From: Calothrix sp. FI2-JRJ7
GTDB lineage: Bacteria; Cyanobacteriota; Cyanobacteriia; Cyanobacteriales; Nostocaceae
DNA: 64,000 nucleotides
Assembly (NCBI GenBank): GCA_019359675.1
Contig: JAHHGX010000020.1
Span: 248,001 to 312,000 of the forward strand
Reading direction: 5' to 3'
A program made the position numbers and the translations under genes. The notes below the pieces were generated by a model that worked only from the letters and a program-made list of their open reading frames with translations, did no database searches and was not told the origin of the DNA. Below, in pieces: positions 17,488 to 64,000 of this stretch. Every line of letters begins with the position of its first letter. The first letter of the stretch is position 1.

Positions 17488-18396
17488 ATGACAAATAATA
17501 ATATTCAAGTTATTGGGATTGACCTAGGTGGGACAGCGATAAAGTTGGGGAGATTCACTGTTGACGGCGCCCTTTTACAGTCGATGACGGTTGCAACTCC
17601 TCAACCTCCTGCTCCTGAAATGGTATTGAATGTAATAGTTAACGCACTACAAGAACTTGATGCAAATAATCAAGCTTTTGCTATTGGTGTGGGAATGCCT
17701 GGACCTTCTGACCCAGAGGGACGAATTGCGCTTGTATCTATTAATTTACCAGGTTGGCGTGATGTTCCATTAGCTCAATGGTTAGAAGAAAAAACAGGCA
17801 AACCTACTATTTTGGGTAATGATGCTAACTGTGCTGGTTTAGGTGAAGCTTGGTTAGGTGCCGGTCGTCGGTTCAAAAATTTTATAATGCTTACTTTGGG
17901 TACTGGTGTTGGTGGCGCCGTCTTTATTGACGGTAAATTATTTATTGGACATCATGGCGCCGCAGGTGAACTAGGTTTAATTAGCTTACACGCTTCGGGG
18001 CCAGAATGTAACAGTGGCAACCAAGGCTCATTAGAACAATTTACTTCAATTCGAGCAATTAGGCGCCGTACTGGTAAAGAACCTTCGGAGTTAGGGGAAT
18101 TAGCAGAAACTGGCGATGTAGAAGCTTTAAACTTTTGGCAAGAATACGGAAGAGATTTAGGTATTGGTTTAACAAGTTTAATTTATGTGCTGACACCACA
18201 AGCTATTTTAATTGGTGGTGGAGTAGGCGCCAGTGCGAAGTTTTTTTTACCTAGTGCCAAAGCTGAAATTGAAAAACGAGTCTTTATTACATCGCGCATT
18301 GGTTTAGAAATTTTACCAGCAAAGTTGGGTAATTCAGCAGGAATGTTGGGCGCCGCAAAGTTAGCATTAACAAAAATAAATAGGGGTGACAATTGA
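17488..18396 (+). CDS. ROK-family sugar kinase (glucokinase-like)
   Basis: The 302-residue protein has the phosphate-1 motif IGIDLGGTAIKLG (from ~9), GNDANCAGLGEAWLGAG near 110 with the probable catalytic Asp, and the LTLGTGVGGAVFIDGKL adenosine region near 134-150. It would phosphorylate glucose or a related sugar with ATP in the cytoplasm. The ROK zinc motif CxCGxxGCxE is altered to ECNSGNQGSLE: two of the three Cys are Ser. Glucokinase versus another hexose kinase cannot be decided. GGCGCC is frequent (six sites), which suggests a long-resident gene. Confidence 0.9.
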   Translation: MTNNNIQVIGIDLGGTAIKLGRFTVDGALLQSMTVATPQPPAPEMVLNVIVNALQELDANNQAFAIGVGMPGPSDPEGRIALVSINLPGWRDVPLAQWLEEKTGKPTILGNDANCAGLGEAWLGAGRRFKNFIMLTLGTGVGGAVFIDGKLFIGHHGAAGELGLISLHASGPECNSGNQGSLEQFTSIRAIRRRTGKEPSELGELAETGDVEALNFWQEYGRDLGIGLTSLIYVLTPQAILIGGGVGASAKFFLPSAKAEIEKRVFITSRIGLEILPAKLGNSAGMLGAAKLALTKINRGDN

Positions 18397-18467
18397 ATTC
18401 TTTCAGTAAGTCCAGGATTACTTCTTGGTTCAATGTGGAATGACTATAGTAGTTTAGAGAGTTACGG

Positions 18468-18968
18468 TCAAAACAGGGTAATGGTTTGTACTTTGAAAAT
18501 GCTTGCGCCAAATATTTCGTCCATTATAATTTTTACTGGGAAAGCCATATTCTCGTCTAGGTGAACGTATATGGCGCCTTGCTCAGATAAAAGTTCTTTT
18601 AGTAATATTAGTCTCTGACGCAAAAATTCTAAATATACCGCTCCTGACATACAGTCGTGGTATGCGTGGTCGCTTTTACGAGATTCAAAGCTGCTTCCTG
18701 TTGCGTAGGGAGGGTCTATATAGATTAATCCAACTTTTCCAGCAACGGTAGGGTCTTTTAATAAGGAGCTTAATACCCTTAAATTTTCTCCGTAGATTAA
18801 TTTATTTTTCAGGTTTTTGTCTACAGTGACGACATGCTTTAATTTGGCTGGTTGAGTTTTGAGTATATATTCTGCTGGAATTTTGCCTTCGTAATTTAAT
18901 TGAAAGGATATATTTGTATTTATCGAGTTACTGATATAAGCGTTTTTACCTGGTATCCCTGTTGCCAT
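18468..18968 (-). pseudogene. N-terminal fragment of a site-specific adenine DNA methyltransferase
   Basis: The 166-residue frame carries motif IV LIYIDPPYATGS (DPPY at 85-88), followed by a helix and the GAIYVHLDENMAF strand typical of Mod-type N6-adenine methyltransferases. Complete enzymes run to about 300-600 residues and also carry the SAM-binding FxGxG motif, which is absent here. The frame ends in VQTITLF soon after MDEIFG, where homologues continue. The fragment therefore lacks part of the catalytic domain and is probably inactive. No restriction partner is nearby. Confidence 0.72.
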
Positions 18969-51538: not shown

Positions 51539-52603
51539 ATGATGCTTGCCGATAAAGTTAGTACGGATAGTACCGAACTGCGTCCAGCGCGCGTTTGGAT
51601 GCCAGAACGAGTAGTGTTTACACCCGCAGCACTTGACGAACCGTGGGGACAAAAGATTAAGCAGCGTATAGAAGCGCTCAATTTACCTATTGAAGAGTTG
51701 CCACGTAACCGTCTTACTGGTTTACGCGGAGAAACTGAGCGCGAGACTTATGATATTTCTAAGCGTACCCTTGCTGTAGTAACGGCGCCACCAAGTCAGT
51801 TTAAGCTTAGTCCGATTCCACCTTCTGCTGACTGGCAGTTTCATTTAGCTGAGGGTTGTCCAGCACATTGTCAATATTGTTACCTAGCTGGCAGTTTAAG
51901 CGGACCACCAGTAATTAGAGCATATGCCAACTTACCGCAAATCTTAGATAATTTAGCTAAATACGAGCAACCAGGAAAGGCTACTAGTTATGAGGTTAGC
52001 TGTTATACCGACCCGCTTGGTATTGAGCATTTAACGGGTAGTTTAGCTGAGTGCATTCGTTATTTTGGTACTCGCTCTGATGGGTATTTACGTTGGGTAT
52101 CAAAGTTTGATGCTGTAGAACCACTTTTAGATTTACCACATAACGGACATACTCGCTGTCGAGTCAGTGTAAATGCGGCGCCTATTTCTGGTAGATTTGA
52201 AGGTGGTACTGCGTCAGTAGCATCTCGGTTGATGGGACTGCGAAAGTTAGCATTAGCGAAGTATCCAGTTGGGTTGGTAGTGGCGCCAATTATGCCAATG
52301 GAAGATTGGGAAATGCACTACAGTAATTTGTTCGACCAAATTAGCGAAGCGTTAGATTTTGAATGTGATTTAACTTTTGAATTAATATCGCACCGTTTTA
52401 CACCTGGTTCCAAGGAAGTATTACAAACCTGGTATCCACACTCGAAGTTAGATATGGATGAAGAAAAGCGCAGCGTTAAGCGTAATAAGTTTGGTGGTAC
52501 CAAGTATGTATACGATAACGACATCATGAAAACACTACGCCGCTTCTTTGAGGGTGAAATTGGGCGCCGTTTCCCTAACGCTAAAATCTTATACTGGACT
52601 TAA
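51539..52603 (+). CDS. Spore photoproduct lyase-like radical SAM protein
   Basis: The 354-residue protein has the radical SAM cysteine motif C107-PAH-C111-QY-C114 in HLAEGCPAHCQYCYLAGSL, binding a 4Fe-4S cluster. The overall pattern (RVVFTPAALDEPWGQKI near 24, SPIPPSADWQFHLAEGC, and the C-terminal NKFGGTKYVY near 318) matches the SPL family members of non-sporulating bacteria. True SPL repairs the UV thymine spore photoproduct with SAM. Cyanobacteria form no endospores, so the substrate here is uncertain. It may repair another UV lesion. Five GGCGCC sites lie within or at the end of the gene. Confidence 0.88.
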   Translation: MMLADKVSTDSTELRPARVWMPERVVFTPAALDEPWGQKIKQRIEALNLPIEELPRNRLTGLRGETERETYDISKRTLAVVTAPPSQFKLSPIPPSADWQFHLAEGCPAHCQYCYLAGSLSGPPVIRAYANLPQILDNLAKYEQPGKATSYEVSCYTDPLGIEHLTGSLAECIRYFGTRSDGYLRWVSKFDAVEPLLDLPHNGHTRCRVSVNAAPISGRFEGGTASVASRLMGLRKLALAKYPVGLVVAPIMPMEDWEMHYSNLFDQISEALDFECDLTFELISHRFTPGSKEVLQTWYPHSKLDMDEEKRSVKRNKFGGTKYVYDNDIMKTLRRFFEGEIGRRFPNAKILYWT

Positions 52604-54026: not shown

Positions 54027-57000
54027 ATGATTCAAATTGGTTCACTAGTACGTTCGCTTGATAATGAACTAGGTACGGGAAAGGTAGTTCAACATAGTAA
54101 TCAAGACGTAGTAGTTGAGTATTTCTGCTCAGTAGGGCAATGTATTGAGGAAACAGTACCTTTAGATGAGTTGCGTCGGGTAACACTTCAGCGTCAAACT
54201 CGGTGCTATGTAAAGTCAGAGAGTGATAGATGGTTGATAGGAAGAGTTTTTGGTTGGGATGATTCGCACGGCGCCTATCAAATTGATTTGCCTGACAGTA
54301 AAACTTTGTTTGCTAGGGAGCGGGATGTATATGTTCGCTGCAATTTGCCCATCGAAGACCCTATCGATATATTGACGTATAAGGGTCAAGAAACGCCTTA
54401 TTTCCACCAAAGACGTTTTGCGCTAGTGAAAAACCTAACTTCGCAACGCGCGGTTAGTCGAGGAATGACGGGGTTAATTTCGGCGAATATTGAGTTGCTG
54501 CGTCACCAGGTTGAGGTTGTGCGTCGGGTACTTGAAGACCCTATTCAACGGTATTTGTTAGCTGATGAGGTCGGATTAGGAAAAACGATTGAAGCAGGCG
54601 CCATTTTGCGTCAATATTTACTCGATGACCCAGAGAGACGTGCGATAGTATTGGCGCCGCAGTATTTACTCGAACAGTGGCGTACTGAGTTAAAGAATAA
54701 GTTTTATCTGTCGCATTTTCCCGATAGGGTAGTATTAGCAGCGGTTGAGGATGTTCACAAAGTTAATGCCAAAGCTGATATTGGGCTAATAATTATAGAT
54801 GAAGCTCATCACGTAGCAGCAATGGCAAGGTCAACGGATGCAGTAAAGCGCAGCAGCTTTGGAGCTTTCAAAAAGCTTGCTCACCAGTCAGAGCGGTTGC
54901 TACTACTTTCTGCGACTCCTGTCGTCAACAACGAGGAAGATTTTTTGTCAATGTTGCATCTGCTCGACCCGACAAATTATAAATTAGATGATTTGGAAGG
55001 TTTCCGTGACCGGGTGGCAAAGCGTCAAGATATTGGTCGAGTATTATTGTCGTTTCAAGAGGGTGCAAATCCTTTCGTTCTCAAAAATCAGGTTACACAA
55101 CTTTGCAGTTTATTTCCCGAAGATAAATACTTATCAGATTTGGCAGAAAAGCTACAAAATTCTTTACAAGAAAAAACTGGTAACGAAAATAAAATAGTTA
55201 GAGCGATTCGGACTCATATTAGCGATACATATAGACTTTACCGTCGAATGCTGCGTAATCGTCGCGCATCTGTGGAGGATGTAATATTTGACCGGAATGT
55301 GGCGCCGAAAGCTGAGTATGATTTAGATGAGCGTGTTTACGACATTCACGAGTTAATGGAAGAATGGCGTGGACTGGCGCCTGATAACTCAAACTATCAC
55401 CGCATCTTTTTACTATTGTTCCGTGCCAGTGGTACTTGGTTAGGAATTTTACAGCAAGTTATCGAAGCGCGTTTAAAGGGTAGTTTTCCTCAAGTGTTGA
55501 CGAAAGAGTTTGACACAGATAGTTTGAATATTCTGACTGAAACTCCCAAATTCGACAAGGAAGAAGAAATTTTACAAGGTTTGCTAAAAATTCTTGAGAA
55601 ACCTTCAGAAGATGGCGACCGTTTGGTGTTACTGAGAATAGTAATACTTTACAAGCTCTCAGAAAACTTTAAACTGCAATCGTTCCGTAGTAATTTACCT
55701 AAGTTACTCGAACAAGTGCAATTACGGTTAAGAAGACCAGTACCTGGAGATAAACTACCAAAATTAGTCATATTTACCAGTTATGTGCAAGTTTGCGCTC
55801 AAATTATTAAGTTTTTGCGAGATAGCTTTGGAGAATCATGTATTGCGAGTCATTTACTTGGAGAACCACGAGCGCAAGTAGAAAAAAGTCTTGATAGATT
55901 TAAAAATGACCCTAACTGCTTTATTCTCGTTTGCGACTATTCGGGTGAAGAAGGTCGTAATTTGCAATATGCTGACTCGATGATACATTTTGACTTGCCT
56001 TGGTCGCCAAATCGTTTAGAGCAACGAATTGGTAGAATTGACCGTATTGGGCGCCAGTTGAATGTAGAATTTACAGTATTTGCAGGCGCCGAGATAGATG
56101 ACAGTCCCCACGATGCATGGTATCAATTGTTGAAAGATGGATTTAATATCTTTGAGCAGTCGATAGCGAGCTTCCAGTTTTATGTTGATGGGAAACTGCC
56201 ACAGCTAGAAGCAAGTTTGTTTAAATCTGGGGCAAATGGGTTATTAGAAAGTGTAGAGCAAGTTAAACAAGAAATAGGCTTAGAGCTAGTTAAAATAGAC
56301 GAGCAAAACGCTCTCGATGAAATTAACGCTCTCGATGAAATAGCTAGCGAGTACTTTGAAAGCTTAGATAACTTTGATGCTCAACACCAAGAAATCGAGC
56401 GAGTCACCGAAGACTGGTTATGTAACGCTTTACGGTTAAAGCAGCTAAACGACCCAAACGTATCAGCAGCACAGCGTTATGAACCAACACAGAAAACCCT
56501 AATACCCATTGACGATTTGAGAACTTACTTCGTGGGATTAACAAACGATGTAGGTACATATAACCGAAGAGTTGCCAATCAAAAACCCAACGTCAACCTG
56601 TATCGAATCGGCGAAGGTTTAATCGACTCATTATCATCTTATATACATTGGGATGACCGAGGTCAAGCATTTGCCATGTGGCGAGTTGACGACACTTGGG
56701 ACAAGAGCGAAGGTGCTGAATGGTTTGGTTTTAGATTTGACTACATTATCGAAACCGACTTAAGTAGTTATAAAATAGACCCAATCAAGTACAAAACACT
56801 ACAACGTCGTGCAGATAGCTTATTTCCACCAATCATCCAAAGTATCTTTATCGACGCACGCAACGAGCCAATGAGCATTGTTGAAGACGAAGCACTGTTA
56901 GAAATATTACAACGCCAGTACAAAGGCAAAGGCAAACCACCAATTAAACCGCCAATTAAAGCTGCCGATAAAGCTGCCGCCAAAACCGCGAGTAAAACAC

Positions 57001-57413
57001 CTCCACCTGGCGCCAACAATCAAGATTACAACCTAGCAAAAAGTCGTTTGTCAATACTGGATAACTTTGTACACCCAGACGATTGGCAAGATTTTTGTCG
57101 CGACGCGCGTAACGCATCTGTAGAGTTACTAATCAGCCAAGATAACTTTATAGAAATGTGTGACAAAACAGCAGCAAGCGCAGAACAAAAACTAGGAAGA
57201 CGACTCGAACAACTACGTTTACGTCTTAACCGCATCAAGCAACAAGAAAAAATGATCGACAAATCACTTACCCAAGAAGTAATAGAAGAAGCCAAACTAA
57301 ACCAAGCAATAATAGAAGGTATCCGTCACCCAAATATTCGCCTTGACTCCGTAGGCTTCATTATCGTTTCTGGGCGCCCTCCCATTCAAGGAGGAGAAGT
57401 AGAAGACTGGTAA
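54027..57413 (+). CDS. dpdE: DpdE: SNF2-like helicase protein of the Dpd 7-deazapurine DNA system
   Basis: The 1128-residue protein has an N-terminal β-rich region (~1-110), a SNF2/RapA-like ATPase (Walker A ADEVGLGKTIEAG near 178, DEAH box IIIDEAHHV near 255, motif III LLLSATPV near 294), and helicase C motifs ending QRIGRIDRIGRQ near 667. A Lys/Pro/Ala-rich linker lies near 970-995, then a helical C-terminus. From memory the whole matches protein DpdE, part of clusters that insert 7-deazapurines into DNA and restrict unmodified DNA. DpdE belongs to the restriction part. dpdF, dpdG and dpdH follow in that order, which supports the call. Confidence 0.9.
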   Translation: MIQIGSLVRSLDNELGTGKVVQHSNQDVVVEYFCSVGQCIEETVPLDELRRVTLQRQTRCYVKSESDRWLIGRVFGWDDSHGAYQIDLPDSKTLFARERDVYVRCNLPIEDPIDILTYKGQETPYFHQRRFALVKNLTSQRAVSRGMTGLISANIELLRHQVEVVRRVLEDPIQRYLLADEVGLGKTIEAGAILRQYLLDDPERRAIVLAPQYLLEQWRTELKNKFYLSHFPDRVVLAAVEDVHKVNAKADIGLIIIDEAHHVAAMARSTDAVKRSSFGAFKKLAHQSERLLLLSATPVVNNEEDFLSMLHLLDPTNYKLDDLEGFRDRVAKRQDIGRVLLSFQEGANPFVLKNQVTQLCSLFPEDKYLSDLAEKLQNSLQEKTGNENKIVRAIRTHISDTYRLYRRMLRNRRASVEDVIFDRNVAPKAEYDLDERVYDIHELMEEWRGLAPDNSNYHRIFLLLFRASGTWLGILQQVIEARLKGSFPQVLTKEFDTDSLNILTETPKFDKEEEILQGLLKILEKPSEDGDRLVLLRIVILYKLSENFKLQSFRSNLPKLLEQVQLRLRRPVPGDKLPKLVIFTSYVQVCAQIIKFLRDSFGESCIASHLLGEPRAQVEKSLDRFKNDPNCFILVCDYSGEEGRNLQYADSMIHFDLPWSPNRLEQRIGRIDRIGRQLNVEFTVFAGAEIDDSPHDAWYQLLKDGFNIFEQSIASFQFYVDGKLPQLEASLFKSGANGLLESVEQVKQEIGLELVKIDEQNALDEINALDEIASEYFESLDNFDAQHQEIERVTEDWLCNALRLKQLNDPNVSAAQRYEPTQKTLIPIDDLRTYFVGLTNDVGTYNRRVANQKPNVNLYRIGEGLIDSLSSYIHWDDRGQAFAMWRVDDTWDKSEGAEWFGFRFDYIIETDLSSYKIDPIKYKTLQRRADSLFPPIIQSIFIDARNEPMSIVEDEALLEILQRQYKGKGKPPIKPPIKAADKAAAKTASKTPPPGANNQDYNLAKSRLSILDNFVHPDDWQDFCRDARNASVELLISQDNFIEMCDKTAASAEQKLGRRLEQLRLRLNRIKQQEKMIDKSLTQEVIEEAKLNQAIIEGIRHPNIRLDSVGFIIVSGRPPIQGGEVEDW

Positions 57414-58107
57414 ATACTAAGTGGAACGGGCATCCTTGCCCGTTTGTAACATTGCAATTTAGGTAAATTTTGAAGCTCTTATTTTTTACCACAGAGGCAC
57501 AGAGAACACAGAGAAGGAAACTAAGTAACTACTTACGTTACCCTTGTGGCAAAATAACAACAGTACATGTTAGACTTATGGGAATACGATAATCTTCTTA
57601 GTAACAAGTGCGTTCCAGTATTACTTACACTTAATAAGCCATACTTAGTACATTTGCCTTATTAAGATAACTAGCGCACCTAATTTTAGTTCCTATAAAA
57701 TTGTGTATTCTCTATTTTATCTTGTTATCTTATTTATCTTGTTGTCTTGTGGAACGGGCATCCTTGCCCGTTTGTAATATTGAAATTTATAGGACGGGCA
57801 GGGATGCCCATCCCACAAGATGCATTACAATATGTATAATTATCTACTCAAGATTACTTATTTTATTTTTACAAATATTAAACTGCTGGCACCGTTATCA
57901 TTCTCAAACCATCCAGTGCAAGTAGTATTACGAGTACGAAAAATTACAGTTGGCATTTTGAAAAATAAAATGTTACAAAAAATTTATCAGGATTAATCCG
58001 GATTTAATATTTTTTTGATGAATACAGTTAGCTAATATTAATCGTATTAGTTAAATTACTGAGATTATATAGATAAATATTATACATAAATGAAGCAGTG
58101 ATGATTT
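57414..58107. other. Repeat-bearing gap between dpdE and dpdF
   Basis: About 700 bp. It carries three copies of the 'gggcatccttgcccgt' palindrome: 57422-57443, 57750-57771 and, inverted, 57791-57818. The last two copies face each other. 'ACAGAGGCACAGAGAACACAGAG' microrepeats lie near 57491. The remainder is AT-rich with no gene. dpdF may have its own promoter in the last 150 bp. Confidence 0.55.
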
Positions 58108-60644
58108 ATGACAGATTCGTTTGCGGAACTGCAAGAAATTCTCGAAACAGGTAACATTCCTGAAGATACAAGACATATTACAGAACCTTGTCATCGGCGC
58201 CTTCTCGATGCATTACTTAACAATGCTGCTGCGGGAGATATTGCGAGTTTAGTACGTCATGTACTGCGACGAGAAGATGAAAAACAGGGTGGAAGTTCTT
58301 CAACTCTTATAAAAGTATCTCGTAAACCTCTTTTTCCAAAGCGTGAAGTTTGGGAAAAAAGTAGTATAGCAATTTTCAATGGTGACGATGATAAATATTA
58401 CACGATTAGCGTGCGTCCTTGGAAACCAGAATGGCTAGATTTTGGTAATGAATCTCCTGATAAACCTGTTTTTAAAGAAGAAATGCGACGAAATTATGAT
58501 TATGTCGCAGGAGACCCGTTTTTAAAGCTTATGGGTTTAGATAATTATCGCAGTGTTGGTCAGCGCAGTGCAATTCATGGTATTTTGACGGCGCCTGTTG
58601 ATGCTACTTTGATAATTAATCTACCTACTGGTTCAGGAAAAAGTCTTTGCGCGCAGTTACCAGCTTTGTTAAAGTCTCAAAATGGAGGTGTAAGTATAGT
58701 AGTAGTGCCAACAACAGCACTAGCAATAGACCAGGAAAAAGGATTAAAGTCTATTATTAAGCATGATACGGCTTATTACAGTGATGATAGCCAAGAGGGA
58801 AAAGAACGACGTGAGGCAATACGCACACGAATTCGTGAAGGTACTCAAAGGATTATTTTTACCTCTCCTGAAAGTTTAATGGATTCACTGGCGCCTGCGT
58901 TATACGAAGCGGCAAAGCAAGGAATATTAAAGTACTTTATCATCGACGAAGCGCACATGGTCGAGCAGTGGGGAGATGATTTTCGTCCTGCTTTCCAAGA
59001 AATTCCAGGTTTGCGAAAAGATTTATTACGTCTCGGTTCTTTTATAACACTTCTACTAACTGCGACTCTTACCGAATCTTGTCTAGAAACCTTAGAATCA
59101 TTATTTGGGAAAGACCTAAAAGTAATTTCTGCCGTTCAGCTACGTCCAGAACCTTCGTACTGGTTTAACGAGTGTAAAAACGAAGAAATCAGAAAAGAAA
59201 GGCTAATTGAAACAGTATGCAATCTCCCACGTCCCTTAATTATCTATGGAACCAAAGTTGAAGATGTTCAAAAATGGAAAAAGGAATTAGAGAAAGCAGG
59301 ATTTAAAAGATGTGACTTGATGACGGGTAAATCGACTTCTAAACAAAGATTAGAGCTAATTGAGAAATGGCGAGATAGAAAAATAGTATAGTAGTGGCAA
59401 CTTCTGCATTTGGATTAGGTATTGACCAAGCAGACGTGCGTGCGGTAATTCATGTTTGTGTACCTGAAACTATTGACAGATTTTATCAAGAAGTTGGTAG
59501 AGGTGGAAGAGACGGTAGAGCTTCAATCTCATTGATGTTGTATACAGAGACTGATATCAAAATTGCTCGTGGAATTAATGAGAATTCAGCCATCACTGTT
59601 GAAAGAGGTTTACAGCGTTGGCAAAATATGTTTGCTAACAAAACTCCTTTAAGCGATGGTAGATTTCGTGTTCCTACTGATACACCCCCCTCTTTACTAC
59701 CAGAAGATATAGATATGAGGGGAACCCAGAATAAAGCTAATCGAGCTTGGAATATCCGTACTTTAACGTTAATGAATCGAGCAGGTTTAATTGAAATCGA
59801 CTTTGAAGAACCACCTCTGAAAAAAAGCTTTGAGTTAGAAGAGATATATAACCAAGCATGGGAAAATTACCGAAATCATAAAATTATTAGTATTCGTAAC
59901 CAATCTCATTTGGATAAAGTTACTTGGGAATTTCAAGTAGAACCGATTCGTCTGCAACGTCAAAGTTGGAGTTATAAAAATATCAATCTAATGATAGAAG
60001 CTTTAAAAGCTAAACGATGCATTTCAAAAATATTTCAAGAAGCATACACCATTTCTTTCCAGGGTACAGAAGGAATTAGAAATAAAGTCACAGTTTCTCG
60101 TACTTGTGGGGGTTGTCCTGTTTGTCGAGAAAAAAGAGTTAAACCTTTTGCTGGAATTATGCCAGAACCTAGTCCAGTTTTGCATAACAAGGGTGTTTTT
60201 GTGGGTGAAGAACTCGAACGATTGCTGTGGGGTGAGAATTTACTATTAATTTTTTATGATTCGTTGGAAGAAAAAGGTAAAAAGCGTCAGATTAATAGAG
60301 TTTTTAGATGGTTGCTAGAGCAAAATATTAAAAATGTGATAGCTCCAGATCAATTTAGGGAACACTTTATAAAAGAAGTCAATCTAATTCAAAATGGTTT
60401 CATTTTTTGGTGGTCAAATTATCAACCGCTAAAAATGCCGTGTGTTGCAACTTTTATTTTTCATTCTCCAGGAGAAAAATTACCTTTATCTTATATATCA
60501 AAAAATAGTATGCCGCAGGCGCCAAGGATTATTTTATTATCTATAGATACACCTGACCCTAATCGTAACGATAGAAAAATGATTGACGTTTTTTCGGGAA
60601 GACATTTTAAATTTGATTCATTCTGTACGGAGATTGGGGTATGA
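58108..60644 (+). pseudogene. dpdF: DpdF: RecQ-like helicase, interrupted by a 5-bp tandem duplication
   Basis: Two frames make one protein of about 845 residues. The first (58108-59391) has Walker A LPTGSGKSL near 173, the DEAH box IIDEAHMVEQW near 279 and motif III LLTATL, and ends KWRDRKIV at a TAG. The second resumes as VATSAFGLGIDQADVR from 59394, with QEVGRGGRDG (motif VI of RecQ) and a CGGCPVCREK Cys cluster near the middle. Removing one TAGTA (59389-59393) restores one continuous frame. From memory the fused protein matches DpdF of the Dpd system. It overlaps dpdG by ATGA. Confidence 0.85.
59384..59393 (+). repeat. TAGTA-TAGTA tandem duplication that breaks dpdF
   Basis: Two abutting 5-bp units shift the helicase frame and create an in-frame TAG. 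One unit alone would read K-I-V-V-A-T-S, the motif-V region expected for the helicase. Slipped-strand gain or loss of one unit would switch the gene on or off. Confidence 0.8.
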
Positions 60645-61552
60645 GCTTTTTAAAAACACCAAAAGCAATACCAAGTAGAGTTAGAGGTATTTTTCGGTAT
60701 TTGCTCGCAGTAAAAAACCAAAAGCAAAAAAGAGATGTATTAGAGCAAATTCTTTCTCCTGATAAGTTATTGGAGCGACGTTTATCTGAAGAAATATCAA
60801 AAGAGGAAAAAGTATCACATGTCATGTTCAATGAAACGCTAGGTCAATGTGTCAAGTGTGGTCTTTTAGTAAAAGAAGACGACGAAATTGGTATTAATCA
60901 AAATTTACCAGAACCTGCACGCAGTCGAGAAAGTGGTGATGCTTTATTACCAGATACTCTTGTGACTTTACTTTTTGCCTCTGATAATGCAGACGAAGAA
61001 GACTTTGGTCTTGCTTGTGCTTGGTTTTTAGCACAGGATATATATGATGCACCTGGACATTGGGAAGCAGTACAAACTCAAGTTAGCAACCAACAAGTCG
61101 GAGATTTTTTAAGAATGACTAGCAACCTTTTGTATGACTCTATGGATAACTGGATGTGCTACATGGGTTTAGCTTGGGGTCATAAATTGGGAACAAAAAG
61201 AGTCACCGTTCCAGACCCGACACTATATATAAGACGAAAGTTAAAAGATATATTTAATCAAGAAGTCGGTGCAAAGCTTCTCATGCAAGAATTTATTGAT
61301 AAATTAGCTATAAAGTGTCCTTTATTTGAAACAGGTAAATTTCGAGACGAAATTGAAAAAAATATTGGGCAACGTCAACCCAATTACCTTTCTACTAGTA
61401 CTGCTTTTGCTTTGTTTCGTTTACGTGCAGAAGGTTATATCGAGATGAAGAGGGAGTCAGATGCTGACATCATGATATTACCAAAGGCAAATAACCAAGT
61501 TGATGATGCTGGACGAATTTCTCATATTATTTGGCAAGGTAATAAATCATGA
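60641..61552 (+). CDS. dpdG: DpdG of the Dpd DNA-modification system
   Basis: The 303-residue protein begins MSFLKTPKAIPSRVRGIFRYLL, the start I associate with protein DpdG. A Cys pair (GQCVKCGLLV near 67-76) may be a half zinc ribbon. The remainder is helical, with a possible winged-helix at the C-terminus (FALFRLRAEGYIEMKRES near 266). No catalytic motif is visible. ATGA overlaps join it to dpdF before and dpdH after, so translation is coupled and the proteins probably act together in the restriction part of the system. Confidence 0.85.
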   Translation: MSFLKTPKAIPSRVRGIFRYLLAVKNQKQKRDVLEQILSPDKLLERRLSEEISKEEKVSHVMFNETLGQCVKCGLLVKEDDEIGINQNLPEPARSRESGDALLPDTLVTLLFASDNADEEDFGLACAWFLAQDIYDAPGHWEAVQTQVSNQQVGDFLRMTSNLLYDSMDNWMCYMGLAWGHKLGTKRVTVPDPTLYIRRKLKDIFNQEVGAKLLMQEFIDKLAIKCPLFETGKFRDEIEKNIGQRQPNYLSTSTAFALFRLRAEGYIEMKRESDADIMILPKANNQVDDAGRISHIIWQGNKS

Positions 61553-64000
61553 GTTTTGAAAAGTTTGTTTGTTGGAATTTGGATATGGTACATCGGGTTA
61601 TGAACGTAGAAGCTACTCAACCCGAAAAACATTTGTTTTTAGCGACTCACCACCCAATTGCGATGTACCGTCAGCAACTCATTAATGCATCATCACGGGA
61701 TGAGTACAATGAGCAGCAGTTTCTTAGAGATTTCCTTGCTGAAAAAGATTTTGCATTTGTACCAGTTTTAGGTGGTTCTGGTACTGGGAAGTCACACTTA
61801 ATTCGTTGGTTAGATGCGAATATCGAATCAACCGAGAAACGCAAAGTACTACTAATTCCAAAAATTGGTACAAATTTAAAAGATATTATTACTCTTATCC
61901 TTAATGAAGTGGAAGGAGAAAGGTTTGATGAATACCGTCAACGTGTGAACCGAGCAACTTATACGTTAACGGAAACTCAAGCAAGGGTGAGACTTCTTAA
62001 CGAACTTGCAGCAGCATCGAGTCATAATGGAAACCGAGATATAACTCAACTTACTGACGAGCAAAATTATCTTGTTGAAAAACTCGACTCTTTTCTACAC
62101 GACCCTTTTTTCCGTGAATATTGGTTAAAAGATGATGGTATTATTCATCGTCTCATCACTCATACATTAGGATATAAGGATAAAGTCGAAATTATCGAAG
62201 AAAGACAAGGATTTTCGATAGAAGACTTACCCCTTGATATCCTTAACTGGCAAAAGTCAGCGGCAAAAACCCAAGAGTTTTATACTTTTCTGATTAGTAA
62301 TGAAAGTTTTCAAAAAACTACAGTTGAGTGGTTGAACGAACATCTTAACGAAGCTATCAAACAAGTACTTAGCTTAGGTCGGGAAGACTTGCAGCGATTA
62401 ATGCGTGAAGTGCGTGAAACTTTAGCGGAGCAGGGTGTCGAGTTAGTTTTACTAATTGAAGATTTTGCGAAATTACAAGGTATTGACCGAGAGGTGTTAG
62501 AAGCAGTATTAGCTCGACCACAGCAACCAGGAAGTAAACCTTTGTGTGCAATTCGTACTGCTTTAGCTTGTACTACAGGTTATTTCCAAAGTTTAATCGA
62601 TACCGTTCAACAGCGTATTACCTTTAGTGTCAACCTCGATATTGGTACAGTTGATAATCAATCTTTAATTACCCCAGATGATATTCAAGAGTTTGTGTCT
62701 AGATACCTAAATACGGTTCGTTTAGAAAATCAGGTTATCTCCGACTGGGCAAAAAACAACCAAGAAGAGGATTCTCAACAAGAATCTATCGTCAGTGCGT
62801 GTAACGATTGCGAACATCGTGAAGCTTGTCATGCAGGTTTTGGGAATGTTAACGACATGGGATTATATCCGTTCACACCCAAAGCTTTAGAACAAATGTG
62901 GAATCGTGTCAATACAGGTAACTTTAACCCCCGCATTCTCATTAAAGATGTACTAAAGTATACTTTAGAAAATGGATTCAATGATATTAAGAAAGGTAAT
63001 TTCCCATCTGTGACTTTGCGAGAGCATTTTGGTAAGGTGCGTTTGAATACTATGCTCCAAACAGATATTAGAACAAAAGACCCTTACAATACTGAGCGAC
63101 GTGCAATACTTATAGACTTATGGACTGACAGTAATGAGCTTTGTGACCTACCTGCTTCTGTTCATACTGCTTTTAGTCTACCAACTCTCGGCGCCAAAAT
63201 TCAGCAAACCGAAAATAAACGTACCATTCCAAACCCTCAAAATAATCTTCCCACACCACGCACGGGTGAAGGTGGAGGAAGTTATATAACCGAACCAAAA
63301 TCAGTTGATAAAGAACCAGAAATTCCAGAAACGTTACAAGAAAAGCTAAAAATTCTGGATAACTGGAACAACGAATCAATATTACCTCAAGACATAGCAC
63401 AAAATATACGCACGTTTCTTTTTCCTGCAATAGTTGAAAAAATCCAGTTGGATAATGAACTTTTACTAGAAAATTTTTTTGCTAGTAACACAAGTAAGTA
63501 TTTTAAACAGAAAAATATTTACTTCCATAGTCCGAGGTTTACAAGAGAAAAAGTTTTTGGTGTAAAGTTATTATTACCTCTTAACCCTAATGATAAGAAC
63601 GAGTTTCTTGAAACTGCTGTAGCATTCCAAGGAATTTTACTATATAGTCACCACAAAAACTGGAAGTTTCCGAACGGTGACCGTTATTTACTAACCTATA
63701 GCAAGCTTCTAGAAAAATGGAGTCAGTATGTATTGAAAGCAATTCGTCTTTATCCTAGAGAATCTGGAGAAATTTGGAATCCAGTTCCAGCAGCAGTAGA
63801 ACTGTTAGCGATTGCTGCAACAATGGGAGGACACTCGACTAATTCTCTAGAAAACTTAATTAATGCGTTATTTTTAGATTTAGATAGAAACGATACAGGT
63901 CGTAGTGAGAGTTGGGAAAATCTTTTAAAATCTTTGAAAAAACACCGTGATGAGTTACTAGAAATTGTTCAAACTCGAATTGCTTGTACTAAAGGTAGTT
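61549..64000 (+). CDS. dpdH: DpdH: ATPase of the Dpd system, truncated by the window end
   Basis: An open frame of at least 817 codons starts at the ATG overlapping the dpdG stop (ATGA) and runs off the right edge. It begins MSFEKFVCWNLDMVHRVMN. Walker A VLGGSGTGKSHLIRW lies near 73-87 and a Walker-B-like VLLIEDFAKLQG near 302. A Cys/His cluster CNDCEHREACH near 422 may bind zinc. This matches protein DpdH, a large P-loop ATPase of the Dpd cluster. It carries only one GGCGCC. The complete protein should extend some hundreds of residues further. Confidence 0.85.
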   Translation, partial: MSFEKFVCWNLDMVHRVMNVEATQPEKHLFLATHHPIAMYRQQLINASSRDEYNEQQFLRDFLAEKDFAFVPVLGGSGTGKSHLIRWLDANIESTEKRKVLLIPKIGTNLKDIITLILNEVEGERFDEYRQRVNRATYTLTETQARVRLLNELAAASSHNGNRDITQLTDEQNYLVEKLDSFLHDPFFREYWLKDDGIIHRLITHTLGYKDKVEIIEERQGFSIEDLPLDILNWQKSAAKTQEFYTFLISNESFQKTTVEWLNEHLNEAIKQVLSLGREDLQRLMREVRETLAEQGVELVLLIEDFAKLQGIDREVLEAVLARPQQPGSKPLCAIRTALACTTGYFQSLIDTVQQRITFSVNLDIGTVDNQSLITPDDIQEFVSRYLNTVRLENQVISDWAKNNQEEDSQQESIVSACNDCEHREACHAGFGNVNDMGLYPFTPKALEQMWNRVNTGNFNPRILIKDVLKYTLENGFNDIKKGNFPSVTLREHFGKVRLNTMLQTDIRTKDPYNTERRAILIDLWTDSNELCDLPASVHTAFSLPTLGAKIQQTENKRTIPNPQNNLPTPRTGEGGGSYITEPKSVDKEPEIPETLQEKLKILDNWNNESILPQDIAQNIRTFLFPAIVEKIQLDNELLLENFFASNTSKYFKQKNIYFHSPRFTREKVFGVKLLLPLNPNDKNEFLETAVAFQGILLYSHHKNWKFPNGDRYLLTYSKLLEKWSQYVLKAIRLYPRESGEIWNPVPAAVELLAIAATMGGHSTNSLENLINALFLDLDRNDTGRSESWENLLKSLKKHRDELLEIVQTRIACTKGS

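What the first reader, a model, noticed from the sequence alone, without database searches (positions are those of the whole stretch)
54027..64000. Dpd (7-deazapurine in DNA) restriction-type gene run in a cyanobacterium
Seen: a SNF2-like helicase, a RecQ-like helicase, a protein beginning MSFLKTPKAIPSRVRGIFRY and a P-loop ATPase in consecutive order on one strand, the last three joined by ATGA overlaps. Established: dpd clusters replace guanine with 7-deazaguanine derivatives in DNA and use DpdE-K for restriction of unmodified DNA. Inference: the modification genes dpdA/B/C and the remaining dpd genes lie to the right of the window. Alternatively this is a restriction half without its modification half, which would be new biology.
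Basis: partly seen in the sequence, partly recalled or inferred. Interest (0 to 1): 0.8.

Follow-up and report, generated by a model that had tools for sequence, protein, structure and literature searches.

The report
Orphaned Dpd restriction genes in cyanobacteria
A cyanobacterium carries the attack genes of a DNA-marking phage-defence system but not the gene that marks its own DNA; its copy is broken, yet some relatives keep an intact five-gene core without the marking gene, which raises the question of how it spares the cell's own DNA.

Summary
The four genes are dpdE, dpdF, dpdG and dpdH by curated models. Right of the window lie dpdI, a half-length dpdJ, dpdK and dpdD, then unrelated genes. 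The assembled 8.66-Mb genome has no DpdA over the family cut-off. The locus is decaying: dpdF is split by a frameshift absent from two close relatives, and a deletion removes the second half of dpdJ and the start of dpdK. It is an orphan restriction half, and a broken one.

It is not a lone case. In a draw of 386 cyanobacterial genomes, 8 of 11 with DpdH lack DpdA. Of 27 DpdH genomes gathered, 17 lack DpdA; 12 of these also have no DpdJ or DpdD match anywhere and keep only dpdE-F-G-H-I. Seven have all five genes intact. The state needs at least 2-3 changes on the trees, and its genes evolve under purifying selection. I read EFGHI as a core that does not need the 7-deazaguanine mark. Its function is inferred, not shown.

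The parts
54027..57413 (+). dpdE, SNF2/RapA-like helicase, 1128 aa, intact
   Evidence: NCBIfam NF041062 1073.8 bits, profile 1-1048 of 1048; Walker A, DEAH and arginine-finger patterns present
58108..59391 (+). dpdF, first piece (RecQ-like helicase, profile 1-428 of 813), ends at a premature stop
   Evidence: NF041063 522.7 bits
59380..59394 (+). frameshift in dpdF: one base fewer than in both PCC 7103 and PCC 7102
59394..60644 (+). dpdF, second piece (profile 434-813)
   Evidence: NF041063 393.2 bits
60641..61552 (+). dpdG, 303 aa, probable winged-helix protein; overlaps dpdF and dpdH by 4 bases
   Evidence: NF041064 123.4 bits; AlphaFold2 pLDDT 87.9, pTM 0.86; VIA rows are mostly winged-helix chains (my reading of their titles) at Z 5.6-7.1, below the tool's own threshold of 8
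61549..64000 (+). dpdH, AAA-type ATPase, 1031 aa; continues to 64644. Beyond the window, in extrapolated coordinates: dpdI 64650-65354, dpdJ first half 65398-67569 (cut by a deletion), dpdK 67590-68048 (first codons lost), dpdD 68058-70313
   Evidence: NF041065 829.2 bits in the window; downstream genes NF041066 42.2 bits (below its cut-off of 150), NF041067 1118.7 (1-715 of 1482), NF041068 196.9 (17-167 of 167), NF041061 535.5
59500..64000 (+). mosaic block, about 59500-65300: against D. desertica PCC 7102 nucleotide identity is 0.60-0.82 per 250-base bin (second part of dpdF, dpdG, dpdH, dpdI) and 0.86-1.00 in the bins of the cluster on both sides
   Evidence: protein identities

Best explanation
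The window carries the left part of an orphaned and decaying restriction half of a Dpd island (order E-F-G-H-I-J-K-D). Shown: no DpdA over the cut-off in the assembled genome; dpdF frameshifted; dpdJ and dpdK damaged by one deletion. Shown for relatives: cyanobacterial lineages lack dpdA together with dpdJ and dpdD, with dpdK also missing from the flanks I had, and keep dpdE-F-G-H-I, intact in seven genomes and under purifying selection. Inferred: the Dpd restriction half has two layers. EFGHI is a core complex that acts on incoming DNA without reading 7-deazaguanine: DpdG (probable winged-helix protein) touches DNA, DpdH (AAA ATPase) with the SNF2-like DpdE and RecQ-like DpdF uses ATP to move along, unwind or block it, DpdI is an accessory protein. 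DpdJ (YprA-family helicase), DpdK (PLD nuclease) and DpdD form the arm that goes with the mark and tends to be lost or disabled when the mark is lost. In the window's organism dpdJ and dpdK are already damaged, and the core has begun to fail too.
For: Family assignments. No DpdA over the cut-off: own genome; 8 of 11 DpdH genomes of a 386-genome draw; 17 of 27 DpdH genomes. Sensitivity of that search: in all 7 genomes where tblastn or blastp shows a DpdC-DpdA-like gene beside the island (G011, G129, G195, G321, and those of L077, L080, L082) it reports DpdA over the cut-off, and it rings on E. coli among the controls, presumably its tRNA TGT (14, 31). DpdJ and DpdD: 9 of 10 DpdA+ genomes have both over the cut-off, 12 of 17 DpdA- genomes have no match to either (41, 42; Fisher p 0.004 and 0.0008, not corrected for kinship). 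Intact EFGHI in 7 of the 12. Repeated origin: well-supported branches force at least 3 changes of the EFGHI-only label on the DpdH tree and 2 on the DpdG tree. Purifying selection: 40 gene comparisons in 9 chosen EFGHI-only pairs, dN/dS 0.04-0.59, 33 of them between 0.17 and 0.40. A 27-codon remnant of a modification-side gene just before dpdE in three EFGHI-only genomes points to loss from a full island. No Pfam nuclease family over its cut-off in DpdE-H of the window (H in part), the whole DpdH of PCC 7103, the window genome's DpdI, or any of the five Tychonema proteins.
Against: No function was tested. The winged-helix fold of DpdG rests on middling matches (no Foldseek match at E 0.001 or less). 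The DpdH model failed (pLDDT 56) and DpdI was not folded, so an unrecognised nuclease is not excluded. Several orphan loci are broken (own, PCC 7103, Nostoc spongiaeforme, G464, G226), which fits simple decay; but two DpdA+ islands are damaged too (G011 has dpdJ in two frames, G321 has a split dpdCA and a dpdE lacking its first 230 residues), so damage is not tied to the loss of DpdA. In PCC 7102 all eight genes are intact without a DpdA over the cut-off, which does not fit 'JKD is disabled once the mark is gone'. G129 has DpdA but no DpdD and only a 217-bit DpdJ match. The trees are rooted at the midpoint, and that each pair diverged after the loss is not proved.
Confidence: 0.5

Rival explanations
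1. Orphan Dpd restriction genes are just relics: the modification half was lost and everything else is on the way out, with no function left anywhere.
For: Broken genes in the window's genome (dpdF, dpdJ, dpdK), PCC 7103 (dpdJ profile match starts at 394 of 1482, dpdD cut at about a third), Nostoc spongiaeforme (no dpdE on the contig, dpdF cut, dpdG split), G464 (dpdE and dpdF fused by deletion), G226 (dpdH split).
Against: Seven EFGHI-only genomes have all five long genes intact; dN/dS is 0.04-0.59 in all 40 comparisons; the same five genes remain in lineages that the trees keep apart. Random decay would not be expected to keep about 10 kb of open frames.
Confidence: 0.2
2. The mark is made in trans by another enzyme: a divergent TGT-like protein, or another mark such as phosphorothioate.
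For: 4 of 17 DpdA- genomes have weak DpdA matches (20-67 bits); in the window's genome one lies on contig C65 near a DUF6884-like frame, but it carries an in-frame TAG. DndC is over its cut-off in 16 of the 17 DpdA- genomes, against 6 of 10 DpdA+ ones.
Against: 13 of 17 DpdA- genomes have no DpdA match at E 0.01, although the search rings on E. coli. DndC is over its cut-off in 140 of 176 genomes of the order anyway, and 3 of the 4 DpdA+ genomes without it are Brevibacillus, Paenibacillus and a Clostridiales MAG. No shared modification gene was seen beside EFGHI-only loci, but only 7 neighbours from 3 genomes were scanned with models and the rest were read by eye.
Confidence: 0.15
3. Inverted logic: orphan EFGHI acts like a type IV system and attacks phage DNA that carries 7-deazaguanines.
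For: Phages with DpdA-made 7-deazaguanines exist and are targeted by another modification-dependent system, GrwAB (PMC12137116, passages). A host without the mark could safely keep such a reader.
Against: Nothing here tests it; it would need the recognition rule to flip in each lineage that lost DpdA.
Confidence: 0.1
4. One reading: an ordinary complete dpd island with its modification genes to the right of the window.
For: The order E-F-G-H-(I)-J-K-D is that of islands on plasmids that also carry dpdA (Enterobacter, Agrobacterium).
Against: The next 19 kb hold I, J, K, D and then genes without a Dpd match; no DpdA over the cut-off in a genome rated 99.92% complete.
Confidence: 0.03

Closest known systems
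Dpd (7-deazapurine in DNA) restriction-modification islands, restriction genes dpdD-K
   Same: Same families and the same gene order E-F-G-H-(hypothetical in the place of I)-J-K-D as in plasmid islands of Enterobacter and Agrobacterium, and of Nostoc sp. C057 with extra genes between J and K
   Different: No DpdA in the window's genome; dpdF, dpdJ and dpdK broken; in the 12 EFGHI-only relatives DpdJ and DpdD have no match in the genome and dpdK none in the flanks seen
DISARM, ARMADA, Druantia (other systems with YprA-family helicases)
   Same: DpdJ belongs to the YprA family with DrmAB and DruE (PMC12458937, passages); DpdE also matches DISARM DrmD (174.8 bits, cut-off 610) and PADLOC BrxH (160.5 bits) models
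   Different: All eight proteins match Dpd models best; the EFGHI-only core has no YprA helicase gene
BREX-related capture (BRC) and BRIGADE systems with Dpd-like parts
   Same: Other cases of Dpd parts combined with other defence parts (PMC12839542 and PMC12458937, passages)
   Different: Those have a TGT or a predicted 7-deazaguanine gene cluster; the EFGHI-only loci have no DpdA
Dpd islands that lack the restriction operon (e.g. Hydrococcus rivularis, PMC11888242, passages)
   Same: The two halves of Dpd come apart
   Different: That is the opposite case, modification without restriction. That survey required dpdAB, so it could not see restriction without modification

Membership tests
Dpd restriction-modification system | Restriction-operon proteins DpdD-K | tested here: met
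   D, E, G, H, J (half) and K are over their NCBIfam cut-offs, F in two pieces; I only below its cut-off (42.2 of 150 bits)
Dpd restriction-modification system | DpdA, the TGT that puts the 7-deazaguanine into DNA | tested here: not met
   No match over the cut-off of 200 bits in the assembled genome; best 20.1 bits with an in-frame stop
Dpd restriction-modification system | DpdB | tested here: inconclusive
   No match in the window's genome, but over the cut-off in 0 of 27 DpdH genomes, the 10 with DpdA included, so DpdB does not mark complete islands here
Dpd restriction-modification system | DpdC | not tested
   No whole-genome search was run; in the DpdA+ cyanobacterium G011 a DpdC-like part (29.5 bits) is fused to DpdA
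Dpd restriction-modification system | dPreQ0 or dADG in genomic DNA | not testable with these tools
   Needs LC-MS
Dpd restriction-modification system | Restriction of unmodified incoming DNA | not testable with these tools
   Needs transformation and phage assays; the window's copy has dpdF and dpdJ broken
DISARM / BREX / Druantia | Best match of the proteins to the system's own models | tested here: not met
   DrmD, BrxH, DrmA and DruE models score far below the Dpd models for DpdE and DpdJ

The most novel reading that the evidence does not exclude
dpdE-F-G-H-I is a stand-alone, mark-independent anti-phage system, stripped more than once in cyanobacteria from Dpd islands by losing both the modification genes and the J-K-D arm; it tells self from non-self without 7-deazaguanine and has no recognised nuclease, so it should act by translocation, unwinding or blocking rather than cutting.
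Probability: 0.45. Interest if true: 0.75.

Novelty: new variant of a known kind. Interest (0 to 1): 0.6.

Why it matters
A restriction half without its modification half should either harm its host or be dead. In the window it is broken; in at least seven relatives it looks alive. That makes a question directly testable: which Dpd genes read the 7-deazaguanine mark and which act without it. The absence of dpdJ and dpdD wherever only dpdE-I remains divides the eight restriction genes into two groups. A review (PMC12707154, passages) says the restriction activity associated with ADG has not been further explored.

Tried and rejected
A tandem 5-base duplication as the cause of the dpdF frameshift (my first reading, in note 1) was dropped: against both relatives one base is missing. 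A trans-acting modification half on contig C65 was dropped as the general answer: the TGT-like frame there has an in-frame TAG, and 11 of the 12 EFGHI-only genomes have no DpdA match at E 0.01; its look-alike in Tychonema is intact (read by eye). The TGT-like match in PCC 7102 sits between a DNA polymerase delta'-like and an SSB-like frame (by eye) and looks like another subfamily. Phosphorothioate as a stand-in mark: DndC in 16 of 17 DpdA- and 6 of 10 DpdA+ genomes, and in 140 of 176 genomes of the order, so not informative. DpdB as a test of completeness: over the cut-off in 0 of 27, so not usable here; its four weak matches all lie within 3 kb of dndC on the same contig, so they are probably DndB. 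A shared partner beside EFGHI-only loci: seven neighbours of three genomes scanned, one hit, a type IIG enzyme in G006. Movement of EFGHI as a unit was considered because Tychonema and MAG 341R share one upstream flank while FACHB-DQ6, UBA11344 and PH2015 share another, but downstream stretches are shared in inverted order, so local rearrangement is as likely. The DpdH model was poor, so no fold search was run on it. Fold search of DpdG gave no Foldseek match at E 0.001 or less; long VIA alignments include SspB and FokI at Z about 6, too weak to name a relative. Sequence search of solved structures with DpdG and DpdH gave nothing convincing. Two Pfam matches below the gathering score, Cas3-like C-terminal in Tychonema DpdE and ArdA in its DpdI, were not taken as meaningful. 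Papers: searches of open-licence PMC listed nothing that describes an orphan dpdEFGHI; I saw passages only of five papers, and four central dpd papers are not held, so absence from print is not shown. Partial rows: of the 12 EFGHI-only contigs two start inside dpdF and two end inside dpdH, so for these last two the right flank was not seen. dN/dS was run on 13 chosen pairs: 9 EFGHI-only, 3 of the window's type, 1 DpdA+ (one member of which, G321, is itself damaged).
Full report
What is in the window. On the + strand from 54027 to the right edge lie dpdE, dpdF, dpdG and dpdH. NCBIfam gives DpdE 1073.8 bits (cut-off 500), DpdG 123.4 (80) and DpdH 829.2 for the part in the window (450). DpdF is in two frames that cover profile positions 1-428 and 434-813 (522.7 and 393.2 bits; cut-off 550 for the whole).

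What lies to the right. The window is C20:248001-312000 of an 8.66-Mb genome in 91 contigs, rated 99.92% complete. The next 19 kb hold the end of dpdH, then dpdI (42.2 bits, below its cut-off of 150), dpdJ, dpdK and dpdD over their cut-offs. After them come a frame without a match that looks Rpn-like by eye and nine frames that I scanned: PsbQ and a SigF-type sigma factor over their cut-offs, others below or without a match, none Dpd. dpdJ covers only 1-715 of 1482 profile positions. Against Dulcicalothrix desertica PCC 7102 about 3.95 kb is missing between dpdJ and dpdK, and the dpdK match starts at profile position 17. A search of the whole genome for DpdA gives a single match of 20.1 bits (cut-off 200) on contig C65, with an in-frame TAG. 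DpdB has no match there, but is over its cut-off in none of 27 DpdH genomes, DpdA+ ones included. DpdC was not searched genome-wide.

The frameshift and the state of close relatives. Calothrix sp. PCC 7103 and D. desertica PCC 7102 carry the same locus, with 97.7 and 98.3% identical DpdE. Their dpdF is one open frame with one base more than the window's at the break. In PCC 7103 the dpdJ match starts at 394 of 1482 and dpdD covers only 1-242 of 704; in PCC 7102 all eight genes are intact. Neither has a DpdA over the cut-off (no match in PCC 7103, one of 67 bits in PCC 7102). So decay of this orphan locus is in progress in two of the three.

A mosaic block. Against PCC 7102, nucleotide identity per 250-base bin is 0.86-1.00 to the left and right within the cluster but 0.60-0.82 over about window 59500-65300, that is the second part of dpdF, dpdG, dpdH and dpdI. 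PCC 7103 agrees with the window over this block (0.93-0.99). A recombination seems to have swapped this block as a unit in one lineage. This fits, without proving, that these parts work together.

How common are orphan restriction halves? In a draw of 386 cyanobacterial genomes, DpdH is over its cut-off in 11, DpdA in 6, both in 3 (G129, G195, G321); so 8 of 11 DpdH genomes lack DpdA. In a draw of 176 genomes of the order, DpdF is over its cut-off in 7, plus the window's split copy; DpdA is over its cut-off in 6, of which only 2 (G011, G129) are among these 8. I then took 27 DpdH genomes (19 named ones; G000, G006, G011, G129, G154, G195, G226, G321; two handles that proved to be named ones by shared k-mers are not counted twice). 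DpdA is over the cut-off in 10 and not in 17; 13 of the 17 have no match at E 0.01, and 4 have weak ones of 20-67 bits.

Two kinds of orphan. Of the 17, 12 have no DpdJ match (E 1e-30) and no DpdD match (E 1e-5) anywhere in the genome, and no dpdK in the flanks I had; they keep only dpdE-F-G-H-I. The other 5 (the window's genome, PCC 7103, PCC 7102, Nostoc spongiaeforme FACHB-130, G226) keep at least part of dpdJ. Of the 10 DpdA+ genomes, 9 have both DpdJ and DpdD over the cut-off; G129 has a 217-bit DpdJ match and no DpdD. Fisher tests give p 0.004 (J) and 0.0008 (D), not corrected for kinship.

Are the EFGHI-only copies intact? In 7 of the 12 (Anabaena sp. UHCC 0187, Microcoleus sp. FACHB-DQ6, Tychonema sp. 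LEGE 06208, Spirulina subsalsa FACHB-351, MAG UBA11344, G154, G006) all five frames are whole. In 2 (Dolichospermum sp. ST_sed8, MAG 341R) E, F and G are whole and the contig ends in dpdH; in 2 (Microcoleus sp. FACHB-61, MAG S11.Bin022) the contig starts inside dpdF; in 1 (MAG PH2015, the same as G464) dpdE and dpdF are fused by a deletion. Recalled helicase and ATPase motif patterns are found where the genes are complete, except that the arginine-finger pattern for DpdE was not matched in Tychonema and MAG 341R; the patterns also failed in several DpdA+ proteins, so they are strict. Damage is not confined to orphans: G011 has dpdJ in two frames and G321 a split dpdCA and a shortened dpdE.

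Did this happen more than once, and is it under selection? On trees of DpdH and DpdG (27 rows each) the EFGHI-only label needs 4 and 3 changes; well-supported branches force at least 3 and 2. With the midpoint root, the outermost branches are DpdA+ genomes, so loss is the simpler direction. Three EFGHI-only genomes keep the last 27 codons of a modification-side gene (the 274-aa TGT-like gene of full islands) just before dpdE, a trace of loss. In 9 chosen EFGHI-only pairs, all 40 gene comparisons give dN/dS 0.04-0.59; a DpdA+ pair gives 0.13-0.54. So the orphan core is kept by selection about as strictly as the complete system. The trees do not prove that each pair diverged after the loss.

Mechanism. 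Pfam finds helicase domains in DpdE and DpdF (ResIII, over its cut-off in both, is a helicase-core family despite its name; recalled) and an AAA domain in DpdH. It finds no nuclease family over its cut-off in these, in DpdG, in the whole DpdH of PCC 7103, in the window genome's DpdI, or in the five Tychonema proteins. The DpdG model is confident (pLDDT 87.9, pTM 0.86); its VIA rows are mostly winged-helix chains (Z up to 7.1, below the level at which the tool advises trust) and Foldseek has no match at E 0.001 or less. I take DpdG as a probable DNA-binding winged-helix protein. The DpdH model is poor. DpdJ and DpdK supply the YprA helicase and PLD nuclease of full islands (YprA assignment: PMC12458937, passages). 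From the co-absence I infer that JKD depends on the mark or is harmful without it, and that EFGHI does not need it. That EFGHI defends against phages is inference from family membership and selection, not shown.

Comparison with what is known. Outside cyanobacteria the halves tend to stay together: of 10 plasmid records with a DpdH relative, 8 are among the 25 listed of 32 records with a DpdA relative. The other two are Nostoc sp. C057 (the tally has one Nostoc record, another strain) and Deinococcus taeanensis, which is not in the listing (7 records were not shown) and has a DUF6884 protein upstream of dpdE. A broad survey that I saw in passages required dpdAB (PMC11888242), so it reports islands without restriction genes but could not report the reverse. 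I found no account of a stand-alone dpdEFGHI in open-licence PMC, but the central dpd papers are not held.

Verdict. I file it as a new variant of Dpd.

Noticed in passing
L063:15460-17574 and 17730-18554 (G011), also L077, L080, L082: In full cyanobacterial islands dpdA is fused to an N-terminal part with a weak DpdC match (29.5 bits in G011), and a 274-aa protein that looks TGT-like by eye (11.8 bits to DpdA, E 0.079; no Pfam match) sits beside it, before dpdE in G011, L077 and L080.
   Followed up: partly
27 DpdH genomes, 10 of them DpdA+: No DpdB over its cut-off in any of them: these cyanobacterial and Bacillota islands seem to lack DpdB.
   Followed up: partly
C65:439.5-441 kb of the window's genome (L005): A TGT-like gene broken by an in-frame TAG, near a DUF6884-like frame (PADLOC PDC-M57A, 20 bits) and an SbcC-like fragment (by eye); an intact look-alike lies in Tychonema (L051).
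   Followed up: partly
G011:C32:47982, G514:C65:30680, G509:C17:174030, G226:C5:114350: A second, 1655-1666-aa DpdJ-like (YprA-type) helicase; in the first three genomes it lies 3-5 kb beyond dpdD on the same contig.
   Followed up: no
G065, G075, G107, G121 (order draw): DpdA over the cut-off without DpdF over the cut-off, 4 of 6 DpdA genomes: the opposite orphan, modification without restriction.
   Followed up: no
L072 (G464): dpdE residues 1-258 fused in frame to dpdF from residue 282: an 810-aa open frame.
   Followed up: no
140 of 176 genomes of the order: DndC (phosphorothioation) over its curated cut-off, mostly at 660-740 bits; such uniform scores make a vertically kept role worth checking.
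   Followed up: no
window 51539-52603: Spore-photoproduct-lyase-like radical SAM gene two genes left of dpdE (322 bits, below the cut-off of 400).
   Followed up: no
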